A stretch of 64,000 nt of DNA, from assembly GCF_005843985.1 (NCBI RefSeq), contig NZ_CP040463.1, positions 601,001 through 665,000 on the forward strand, written 5' to 3'. Numbering within the stretch: position 1 is the stretch's first letter; the number at the start of each line of letters is the position of its first letter. The position numbers were made by a program, and so were the translations under genes. The notes below the pieces were generated by a model that saw only the letters and a list, made by a program, of their open reading frames with translations, searched no databases and had not been told where the DNA came from. Source of the DNA: Caminibacter mediatlanticus TB-2 (GTDB taxonomy: Bacteria; Campylobacterota; Campylobacteria; Campylobacterales; Nautiliaceae). Shown here piece by piece: positions 13,500 to 15,592 of the stretch.

Positions 13500-13528
13500 T
13501 TGACAAATAACAAAGTTTAGCTTATAAT
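13500..13528 (+). promoter_or_regulatory. Consensus sigma-70 promoter of the selenocysteine peroxiredoxin gene
   Basis: TTGACA (13500-13505) and TATAAT (13523-13528) are both perfect consensus with a 17-base spacer. Transcription would start near 13535, right at the first leader hairpin. This is one of the strongest promoters in the window. Confidence 0.88.
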
Positions 13529-13534
13529 ATTGAA

Positions 13535-13599
13535 TGGGAATAATCCCAAAAGTATTACTCACAGGTTGTGAGTAATCCAAAAAAAAAGCTCAGGTGAGC
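13535..13599 (+). promoter_or_regulatory. Structured leader with three successive hairpins
   Basis: Hairpin 1: TGGGA (13535-13539), loop ATAA, TCCCA (13544-13548). Hairpin 2: ATTACTCACA (13554-13563), loop GGT, TGTGAGTAAT (13567-13576), a perfect 10-bp stem. Hairpin 3: GCTC (13588-13591), loop AGGT, GAGC (13596-13599), ending directly before the ribosome site AAGGAGG (13600-13606). They fill nearly the whole leader. They could stabilise the mRNA, bind a regulator, or (hairpin 2 as DNA) serve as an operator downstream of the start site. Confidence 0.65.
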
Positions 13600-13611
13600 A
13601 AGGAGGAAAAA

Positions 13612-14304
13612 ATGGAAGAAGTAGTAAAAACACAAGAAGGTGTATTAGTATTAAAGAATATGCCAGAATTTAAAATGGAAGCATATGATGCAGCAACAGG
13701 TCATTATACAGAAGTTAGCAGTGAAGATTATAAAGGAAAATGGACAGTAATTTGTTTCTATCCAGCAGATTTTACATTTGTTTGACCTACTGAAATAGCT
13801 GCCGTGAATGCAGCATTACCATTCTTTAAAGAACTTGGAGTAGAGGTTTTAGCAGTATCAACAGATACAAAATTCTCACATAAAAGATTTGTAGAAACTG
13901 AACCATTATTAAAAGATTTAAAACTTACATTAGCATCAGACCCAACATTAGAAGTTACAAAAAAATTTGGAGTTTTAATAGAGGGTGCAGGACTTGCGCT
14001 TAGAGGAAGATTTTTAATTAATCCAGATGGACAAATAGTAGCTGAGGAAGTTCAATCACCACCAGTTGGAAGAAGTGTAAAAGAGTTTTTAAGACAAGTT
14101 ATGGCACATCAATATGCATACAAAACAGGAGAAGTTTGTCCAGCAAACTGGAAACCTGGTAAAAAAACATTACCTGTAAATACAGATATAGAACCAATGA
14201 CAGGAAATGTTGGAAAATATGTAACATTAGAAGATTTAATTGATGAAAATGATGTAAAAGAAATGAAAGAGATGTTAGAAAAATTTAAAGAAATTTCTAA
14301 ATAA
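13612..14304 (+). CDS. Selenocysteine-containing 2-Cys-type peroxiredoxin (UGA at 13783-13785 read as Sec)
   Basis: The frame runs from ATG 13612 (AAGGAGG five bases ahead) to TAA 14304, interrupted only by UGA at codon 58. The context FTFV-U-PTEI aligns exactly with FTFV-C-PTEI of the paralogue at 14846-15592, where the Cys is the peroxidatic residue of AhpC/Tsa peroxiredoxins. Read through, the product has 230 residues, the same as the paralogue without its N-terminal extension. The resolving Cys is Cys176 (EVCPANW). A SECIS-like hairpin follows the UGA. The enzyme would reduce H2O2 and organic peroxides with a selenol. An in-frame GTG at 13594 is an alternative start but lies in hairpin 3. 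Annotation pipelines would split this gene in two at the UGA. Confidence 0.87.
13783..13824 (+). promoter_or_regulatory. UGA codon plus bacterial SECIS element
   Basis: After UGA (13783-13785), GCUGC (13798-13802) pairs with GCAGC (13810-13814) around the loop CGUGAAU. The loop GU is 19-20 bases after the UGA, close to the position of GU in the E. coli fdhF SECIS. GAA (13792-13794) may pair with UUC (13822-13824) as a lower stem. In the cysteine paralogue the same codons read GCAGCA AUG AAU GCAGCA, which cannot form this stem and lacks the loop GU. I could not identify a clear bulged U as in fdhF. Confidence 0.8.
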
Positions 14305-14365: not shown

Positions 14366-14761
14366 ATGAAAAATTTAAAAAGTTTACTTGAAAGTACTGA
14401 ATTAAAAATTACACCTCAAAGACTTGCAATATTAAAAGAATTAGAAAATTTTGGACATGCAACTATTGAGGAGATTTATGAAAATATTAAAGAGATATTC
14501 CCTTCAATCTCTCTTGCAACTATTTATAAAAATATTAATGCCCTAAAAGAAGCAGGCATTATTTGTGAAATATGTACTCCATATAAAAATAAATATGAAA
14601 TAAATAAAGGAGAACATGGTCATTTTATATGTGCTAAATGTGGAAATATTGAAGATTTTGAATTAACTGATGAGATGATAAAATCGATTGAGAATAAATA
14701 TCCAAATACTAAAAAAGAGATTTATATCTATGGAGTGTGTGAAAATTGTAATAAAAACTAA
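14366..14761 (+). CDS. perR: Fur-family peroxide-type regulator (PerR-like)
   Basis: The 131-aa protein has the Fur architecture: a winged helix at about 10-80 (LKITPQRLAILKEL, ISLATIYKNINALKEAG) and a C-terminal metal and dimer domain with HGHFICAKCG and VCENC, giving the two CxxC pairs of the structural zinc site. Its position between two peroxiredoxin genes argues for PerR rather than Fur. It probably represses one or both, releasing on iron-catalysed oxidation. ATG 14366 follows AAAGGATAGT. Distinguishing PerR from Fur by sequence alone is not secure. Confidence 0.8.
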   Translation: MKNLKSLLESTELKITPQRLAILKELENFGHATIEEIYENIKEIFPSISLATIYKNINALKEAGIICEICTPYKNKYEINKGEHGHFICAKCGNIEDFELTDEMIKSIENKYPNTKKEIYIYGVCENCNKN

Positions 14762-14791: not shown

Positions 14792-14826
14792 TTGACAATC
14801 GGTTGCTATTTTATTATAATATAAAA
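14792..14826 (+). promoter_or_regulatory. Promoter of the cysteine peroxiredoxin gene with overlapping inverted repeat
   Basis: TTGACA (14792-14797) and TATAAT (14815-14820) are perfect consensus with 17 bases between. The -10 box is the centre of TTTTAT-N6-ATAAAA (14809-14826), a perfect inverted repeat and a candidate PerR-type operator. In such AT-rich DNA the repeat could be chance. Confidence 0.75.
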
Positions 14827-14845: not shown

Positions 14846-15592
14846 ATGGCTTGCGAAAAAGATACAAAAGAATTAAATAAAACAACAAAAGAGGAAAAAA
14901 TGGAAGAAGTAGTAAAAACACAAGAAGGTGTATTAGTATTAAAGAATATGCCAGAATTTAAAATGGAAGCATATGATGCAGCAACAGGTCATTATACAGA
15001 AGTTAGCAGTGAAGATTATAAAGGAAAATGGACAGTAATTTGTTTCTATCCAGCAGACTTTACATTTGTATGTCCAACTGAGATTGCAGCAATGAATGCA
15101 GCACTTCCAATTTTAAAAGAACTTGGAGTAGAAGTTTTAGCAGTATCAACAGATACAAAATTCTCACATAAAAGATTTGTAGAGACTGAACCATTACTAA
15201 AAGATTTAAAATTAACTATTGCAGCGGATCCAACAGGTGAGGTTACAAGAAAATTTGGTGTAATGATTGAGGGTGCAGGACTTGCACTTAGAGGAAGATT
15301 TTTAATTAATCCAGATGGACAAATAGTTGCTGAGGAAGTTCAATCACCACCAGTTGGAAGAAGTGTAAAAGAATTTGTAAGACAAATTATGGCACATCAA
15401 TATGCATACAAAACAGGAGAAGTTTGTCCAGCAAACTGGAAACCTGGCAAAAAAACACTTCCTGTAAATACAGATATTGAACCAATGACAGGTAATGTTG
15501 GAAAATATGTAACATTAGAAGATTTAATTGATGAAAATGATGTAAAAGAAATGAAAGAGATGTTAGAAAAATTTAAAGAAATCTCTAAATAG
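14846..15592 (+). CDS. 2-Cys peroxiredoxin, AhpC/Tsa family (cysteine paralogue)
   Basis: The 248-aa protein has peroxidatic Cys in FTFVCPTEIAA (about residue 76) and resolving Cys in GEVCPANWKP (about residue 194), typical of 2-Cys peroxiredoxins that reduce peroxides through a disulfide. ATG 14846 follows AAGGAG and lies about 20 bases behind the start site of its promoter. An internal ATG at 14900, at the point where similarity to the Sec gene starts, is a second possible start. The 18-residue extension carries an extra Cys at position 3. The first 160 bases from ATG 14900 and the last 120 bases are almost identical to the Sec gene. Its stop overlaps the next gene by one base. Confidence 0.95.
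   Translation: MACEKDTKELNKTTKEEKMEEVVKTQEGVLVLKNMPEFKMEAYDAATGHYTEVSSEDYKGKWTVICFYPADFTFVCPTEIAAMNAALPILKELGVEVLAVSTDTKFSHKRFVETEPLLKDLKLTIAADPTGEVTRKFGVMIEGAGLALRGRFLINPDGQIVAEEVQSPPVGRSVKEFVRQIMAHQYAYKTGEVCPANWKPGKKTLPVNTDIEPMTGNVGKYVTLEDLIDENDVKEMKEMLEKFKEISK

What the first reader, a model, noticed from the sequence alone, without database searches (positions are those of the whole stretch)
13612..14304. Selenocysteine peroxiredoxin: in-frame UGA replaces the peroxidatic cysteine
Seen: a peroxiredoxin frame is interrupted by a single TGA at 13783-13785, exactly where the neighbouring paralogue has TGT for the peroxidatic Cys (FTFV-C-PTEI). The frame continues intact for 172 further codons to the same C-terminus. 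Known: Sec replaces catalytic Cys in some bacterial peroxiredoxins, and Campylobacterota such as C. jejuni insert Sec in other proteins. Inferred: this is a true selenoprotein that standard annotation would split into two fragments.
Basis: partly seen in the sequence, partly recalled or inferred. Interest (0 to 1): 0.93.

Follow-up and report, generated by a model that had tools for sequence, protein, structure and literature searches.

The report
Selenium-using peroxidase gene with cysteine twin
In a bacterium related to the deep-sea-vent family Nautiliaceae, a peroxide-detoxifying enzyme gene carries a UGA stop codon where its neighbouring twin gene encodes the catalytic cysteine, and an RNA hairpin just after it, found at the same place in three distant relatives, is predicted to make the ribosome insert selenocysteine there instead of stopping.

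Summary
Confirmed and extended. Peroxiredoxin frame 13612-14304 is open except for one TGA (13783-13785) at the peroxidatic Cys. The genome (one contig, rated 100% complete) has selA, selB, selC and selD; selD and a formate-dehydrogenase-type gene also carry in-frame TGAs. A SECIS-like hairpin (13798-13814) starts its loop 17 nt after the UGA, as in 6 of 8 SelD genes of the family. 97 of 98 distinct Cys-type sites lack it; the exception, a sister-genus gene with TGT and the identical hairpin, is a likely fossil SECIS. Three genomes in two other families also have TGA there, with the same hairpin (one with a G-U pair) and selB. The hairpin goes with a Met-to-Val change in the protein. The Sec and Cys copies flank a PerR-like gene and look like a gene-conversion mosaic: near-identical ends, about 76% identity around the Sec site. 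On the protein tree the eight Sec-labelled rows (four inferred without DNA) fall in four places, so Sec codon plus SECIS either arose repeatedly or persists and moves as a short island. Sec-peroxiredoxins are known; this Campylobacterota lineage was not found in the paper searches made. Selenium incorporation itself is untested.

The parts
13500..13528 (+). sigma-70-like promoter TTGACA-17-TATAAT of the Sec copy
   Evidence: 12 of 12 consensus match; the total number of promoter-like sites in the region is no more than in shuffles (10 against a mean of 11.2)
13554..13576 (+). inverted repeat / leader hairpin ATTACTCAC-AGGTT-GTGAGTAAT, function unknown
   Evidence: 13534-13625 folds with z -4.71, 0 of 200 shuffles as well; expected by chance 0.00 with up to 3 mismatches
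13600..13606 (+). AAGGAGG ribosome-binding site
   Evidence: sequence
13612..14304 (+). selenocysteine peroxiredoxin, 230 residues read through the TGA
   Evidence: PF00578 121.3 bits and PF10417 39.7 bits; dN/dS 0.13 after the TGA
13783..13785 (+). TGA, predicted Sec58, at the peroxidatic Cys (motif PxxxTxxU)
13798..13814 (+). SECIS-like hairpin GCUGC-CGUGAAU-GCAGC
13804..13806 (+). GTG, Val65, where Cys homologues have ATG; supplies the loop G
14137..14139 (+). TGT, Cys176, predicted resolving Cys (VCPANW)
   Evidence: role recalled from the family
14366..14761 (+). Fur-family, PerR-like regulator gene between the two copies
   Evidence: PF01475 93.9 bits; best NCBIfam model a PerR at 97.1 bits, under its cut-off of 180
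14792..14820 (+). sigma-70-like promoter of the Cys copy
   Evidence: 12 of 12 consensus match
14846..15592 (+). Cys-type twin (TGT at 15071-15073), without the hairpin

Best explanation
The gene encodes a typical 2-Cys peroxiredoxin whose peroxidatic cysteine codon is TGA, followed 12 bases later by a five-pair hairpin, in a genome with selA, selB, selC and selD, and it is therefore predicted to be read through with selenocysteine at residue 58. Inferred steps: SelB with Sec-tRNA would bind the hairpin loop and decode the UGA; Sec58 would attack peroxides and become a selenenic acid; Cys176 would resolve it as a selenenylsulfide; a thioredoxin-type reductase would recycle it. The Cys copy beyond the PerR-like gene would be a selenium-independent partner or backup. 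Shown by sequence: the two copies are near-identical at both ends and diverged around the Sec codon, and Val replaces Met where the hairpin loop needs its G. Inferred: gene conversion homogenises the copies, and conversions that erase the Sec codon or hairpin are selected against.
For: Machinery complete; two other TGA genes in the genome, selD and a formate-dehydrogenase-type gene. U aligns with the peroxidatic Cys of solved peroxiredoxins. Hairpin loop at offset 17, as in 6 of 8 SelD genes (17) and near 6 of 6 FdhA-type genes (18) of the family; descriptor passes 13 of 14 such positive controls. TGA plus the same hairpin in G495, G498 and G499, each with selB over its cut-off and with selenium or formate genes beside it: seleno_YedE 486.9 bits, cysteine desulfurases, FdhD. 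dN/dS 0.13 after the TGA. Three of nine short database proteins end exactly before the site (P0122, P0123, P0128).
Against: No experiment. In the family only this genome has TGA (1 of 20 places). Hairpin fold energy ordinary and no Rfam match. Descriptor misses one true Sec gene (L151) and finds another in a shifted register (L150). The organism also has a Cys copy, so the Sec copy could be dispensable.
Confidence: 0.94

Rival explanations
1. The TGA is a nonsense mutation or sequencing error in a redundant duplicate, and the hairpin is chance.
For: A Cys copy is present, so loss would be tolerated; only this genome of 21 in the family has the TGA; hairpin background 1.0-4.5%.
Against: dN/dS 0.13 and no indel after the TGA; same TGA and hairpin in three genomes of two other families; full Sec machinery.
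Confidence: 0.03
2. The UGA is read as another amino acid (Trp) or is a programmed stop that yields a short regulatory product; no Sec.
For: Two database proteins have W at the site (P0085, P0136).
Against: W at a peroxidatic Cys would abolish the enzyme (recalled chemistry); the likelier reading of the W is a gene caller using a code with TGA as Trp (inferred; DNA not seen). A dedicated Sec tRNA and SelB exist.
Confidence: 0.03
3. Evolutionary rival, compatible with the Sec function: the Sec form arose several times independently by Cys to Sec, and the shared hairpin is convergence on what SelB needs.
For: Sec-labelled rows need four changes on the protein tree, forced by well-supported branches, and 0% of 200 bootstrap trees unite them. 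Ala codons give the stem almost for free: probability 0.42 under window codon usage. Zhang et al. count five Cys-to-Sec events in peroxiredoxins (PMC1794560 Table 1).
Against: Window gene and G015 share 27 contiguous bases (13789-13815), with ATA outside the hairpin. The exact codon set has probability about 0.0006 given a pairing stem, with window usage taken for all. Four of the eight Sec rows rest on proteins without DNA, and the bootstrap had not settled.
Confidence: 0.5

Closest known systems
PrxU-type selenocysteine peroxiredoxins (Eubacterium acidaminophilum; NCBIfam NF040737; Prx with TxxU in PMC13188914, passages seen)
   Same: Peroxiredoxin fold with Sec for the peroxidatic Cys in PxxxTxxU.
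   Different: 191.4 bits against a cut-off of 270; G495, G498 and G499 proteins 213.0-217.4 bits, also under it. Branches with Campylobacterota Cys peroxiredoxins in a tree that held no PrxU.
AhpC / Cys-type peroxiredoxin of Nautiliaceae (own twin and relatives)
   Same: 96% protein identity to the twin, 80-93% to full-length matches of the family; same place upstream of the PerR-like gene as in L104 and L132.
   Different: TGA and hairpin; Val65; no MACEKDTK-type N-terminal extension; structured leader.
Known epsilonproteobacterial selenoproteins (Fdh, SelD, SelW, a thioredoxin, DUF466, a C. curvus thiol peroxidase; PMC4607533, passages seen)
   Same: Minimal SECIS: 5/6-bp hairpin a few bases after UGA with an invariant loop G.
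   Different: Its main text has 0 hits for peroxiredoxin, Prx and AhpC; for the C. curvus thiol peroxidase the database homologues have Sec at another position. Supplements not read.

Membership tests
Bacterial selenoprotein | In-frame UGA aligned with a conserved redox Cys | tested here: met
Bacterial selenoprotein | Genome encodes SelA, SelB, SelD and tRNA-Sec | tested here: met
Bacterial selenoprotein | SECIS hairpin just after the UGA with a loop G | tested here: met
   by descriptor and conservation, not by SelB binding; no Rfam match
Bacterial selenoprotein | Selenium in the protein | not testable with these tools
   needs 75Se or mass spectrometry
Typical 2-Cys peroxiredoxin | AhpC-TSA domain, 1-cysPrx_C domain, PxxxTxx(C/U) and a C-terminal resolving Cys | tested here: met
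   (U58, C176); with U in place of the peroxidatic Cys
AhpC equivalog TIGR03137 | Score of at least 272 bits | tested here: not met
   198.8 bits; the Cys twin 202.6
PrxU equivalog NF040737 | Score of at least 270 bits | tested here: not met
   191.4 bits
C. curvus-type Sec thiol peroxidase | Sec position and family | not tested
   only passages of PMC4607533 seen

The most novel reading that the evidence does not exclude
The Sec codon and its hairpin form a short island of about 25-30 bases that outlives the gene around it: the rest of the Sec gene is overwritten by gene conversion from the local Cys copy, while the island persists, moves between peroxiredoxin genes of different genera by recombination, and can revert to Cys and leave a fossil SECIS. 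Selenocysteine would then be inherited as an active-site cassette and not as a gene.
Probability: 0.4. Interest if true: 0.82.

Novelty: new variant of a known kind. Interest (0 to 1): 0.66.

Why it matters
How Sec residues are gained and lost is mostly inferred from trees. Here a Sec codon and the matching Cys codon of its twin lie 1.3 kb apart, a sister genus keeps the SECIS without the Sec codon, and an RNA element seems to dictate a protein residue (Met to Val). That would make the gain, the loss and the protein cost of selenocysteine testable in one small gene family. By table 11 the gene reads as two ORFs, and database proteins suggest that other such genes were split or read with Trp.

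Tried and rejected
Considered first: a recent lineage-specific Cys-to-Sec change in a fresh duplicate, because only this one of 21 family genomes has a TGA or a second close copy. Dropped as the whole story when the identical hairpin appeared in G015 with TGT and in G495, G498 and G499 with TGA, and when synteny put the Sec copy at the ancestral place before the PerR-like gene (two relatives looked at).

A covariance model of SelD and FdhA hairpins was planned; MAFFT did not put the two loops in register, so a plain descriptor was used and no model was built. Rfam gave nothing. Leaders were compared by folding: the four Sec leaders are structured (z by simple shuffles -3.35 to -9.84), but those of G495 and G498 look like terminators of the gene before, and no common element was shown.

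Not counted as Sec genes: P0131 and P0135 (C-terminal fragments that begin with ATG at the Val/Met site) and P0133 (foreign N-terminus). Of nine short N-terminal proteins, three end at FTFV; five run past the site (four with C, P0126 with F) and P0129 stops before it. The TGA flag of G507 is not at the site, which reads TGC. Not run: structure prediction, plasmid, phage or metagenome searches.

Full report
Observation. Window 13612-14304 encodes a 230-residue peroxiredoxin interrupted only by TGA at 13783-13785. PF00578 and PF10417 match over their cut-offs, and the two alignments shown to solved 2-Cys peroxiredoxins put residue 58 on the Cys of FTFVCPTEI; that this is the peroxidatic Cys, and Cys176 the resolving one, is family knowledge (recalled). 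A Cys-type twin lies at 14846-15592 with a Fur-family, PerR-like gene between. ATG 13612 has AAGGAGG at 13600-13606, and each copy has a 12-of-12 sigma-70-like promoter.

Machinery. The genome is one contig of 1,685,887 bases. selA (1563578-1564876), selB (1564894-1566702), tRNA-Sec (1566714-1566807, minus strand) and selD (1569980-1570900) lie close together; ARAGORN calls tRNA-SeC with anticodon tca. selD and a formate-dehydrogenase-type gene each have an in-frame TGA. Records of nearest kin are titled Nautiliaceae.

SECIS. Twelve bases after the UGA lies GCUGC-CGUGAAU-GCAGC (13798-13814). As positive controls I took 8 SelD and 6 FdhA-type genes of the family: 13 of 14 pass a strict descriptor (loop at 17 nt in 6 SelD genes, 18 in 6 FdhA-type genes; L150 passes in a shifted register at 16; L151 fails). 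The window gene's loop is at 17. Among 99 distinct peroxiredoxin sites two have the hairpin: this gene and L104 of G015. Background: 504 of 23,734 ORF codons, 10 of 223 Cys codons, 0 of 27 terminal TGAs; 196 of 18,703 in a narrower form. Folding energy is ordinary. The layout fits the epsilonproteobacterial SECIS of Cravedi et al. (PMC4607533, passages).

Other genomes. TGA and the same hairpin are in G495 and G498 (family f20, genus g49) and G499 (family f6, genus g94; last pair G-U). selB passes its cut-off in 6 of 9 genomes tested: G495, G498, G499, G015, G088 and G100; not in G062, G102 (70% complete) and G103. Beside the Sec gene stand a seleno_YedE transporter (L166), cysteine desulfurases (L167, L168) and FdhD (L168). 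In one search, 76 of 398 order genomes match at the threshold; by the open-frame column, and by DNA for those fetched, four have TGA at the site (G000, G495, G498, G499). In one search, 46 of 397 phylum genomes match, and G000 alone has a TGA inside. Further Sec genes are inferred from proteins whose DNA was not seen: P0122, P0123 and P0128 end just before the site (3 of 9), P0132 and P0134 begin with V at the Val codon, and P0085 and P0136 have W at the site together with Val.

RNA and protein. The loop G is the first base of the Val65 codon. Of 141 proteins fetched or made (capped lists), 130 hold the motif: 126 have C with M, two W with V, one C with L, and one is the query itself. In the DNA set the one Cys gene with Val is G015. 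A search for PTE(I/L)AAVNA-type DNA in 397 class genomes found only G000 and G015; G495, G498 and G499 were not among those genomes. The four Sec genes use the same codons at 5 of 5 hairpin positions, against 11-32 of 29-45 elsewhere by pair; 149 of 4,753 pairs of Cys homologues agree at the four comparable codons. GCC and GTG are rare in the window (4.0% of Ala, 3.6% of Val codons).

Fossil SECIS. G015 has one close copy, placed before a PerR-like gene (by likeness to the window's), with TGT, the whole hairpin, and 27 contiguous bases in common with the Sec copy (13789-13815). It has selB, and selD and an FdhA-type gene with TGA. The simplest reading is Sec reverted to Cys with its SECIS left over, as Zhang et al. 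describe for other families (PMC1794560, passages and tables). Import of the tract without its TGA is not excluded.

Mosaic pair. In L104 and L132 the order is argF-like, a small gene, peroxiredoxin, PerR-like, a small gene, pyk-like (by likeness to the window ORFs); the window has the Sec copy in that place and the Cys copy as an extra one after the PerR-like gene. Identity of the copies by segment, 5' to 3', is 100, 98.8, 75.9, 97.2, 75.6, 98.0, 93.3 and 98.2%. A run of 66 identical variable sites is reached in 1 of 20,000 permutations. In the two diverged segments the copies differ about as much as genes of other species do. This suggests gene conversion that has spared, or been selected against in, the Sec-SECIS segment; the second diverged segment is unexplained.

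History. On a 76-row protein tree the eight Sec-labelled rows need four changes, forced by well-supported branches, and 0% of 200 bootstrap trees unite them. Four of those rows are inferred (P0085, P0136, P0132, P0134); the rows with DNA fall in two places. The bootstrap had not settled, and only part of the Cys homologues were given to the tree. Either the Sec form arose several times, helped by an Ala-Ala-x-x-Ala-Ala motif that nearly folds into the stem already (0.42), or a short island persists and moves. The G015 tract and the rare codons favour the island for G000 and G015; the rest is open.

Known or new. Sec-peroxiredoxins are known (PMC13188914, passages; PMC1794560 Table 1, counts five Cys-to-Sec events). 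The window protein fails the PrxU and AhpC equivalog cut-offs. The library held no paper with selenocysteine + peroxiredoxin + Campylobacterota, selenoprotein + Nautiliaceae, or selenoprotein + peroxiredoxin + Sulfurospirillum. Searches with hits were seen as listings; I opened passages of four papers. The N. profundicola genome paper reports a tRNA for selenocysteine and an Ahp homologue with a peroxide regulator of the next gene number (PMC2628731, passages). Hence: a new variant of a known kind.

Noticed in passing
window 13534-13625: The Sec copy's leader is strongly structured (z -4.71, 0 of 200 shuffles) with the inverted repeat 13554-13576 and a small hairpin at 13588-13599; the Cys copy and two relatives' leaders are not. 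The G499 Sec leader has a hairpin with the same CTCACA/TGTGAG stem core. Possible regulatory element.
   Followed up: partly
window codons 98-123 of the Sec copy (about 13903-13980): A second diverged segment between the Sec and Cys copies (75.6% identity) that lies outside the Sec-SECIS segment and has no explanation here.
   Followed up: partly
G000:C1:1542546-1543400 and G000:C1:1569980-1570900: A formate-dehydrogenase-type gene and selD each with an in-frame TGA, so the genome has at least three Sec-type genes; 13 of 21 family genomes (some incomplete) show no SelD match, so the trait is patchy.
   Followed up: partly
L166 (G495), just upstream of the Sec gene: A 26-bp near-perfect hairpin (simple-shuffle z -9.84) between a carbonic-anhydrase-like ORF and the Sec gene, terminator-like or regulatory (the ORF named by eye).
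   Followed up: no
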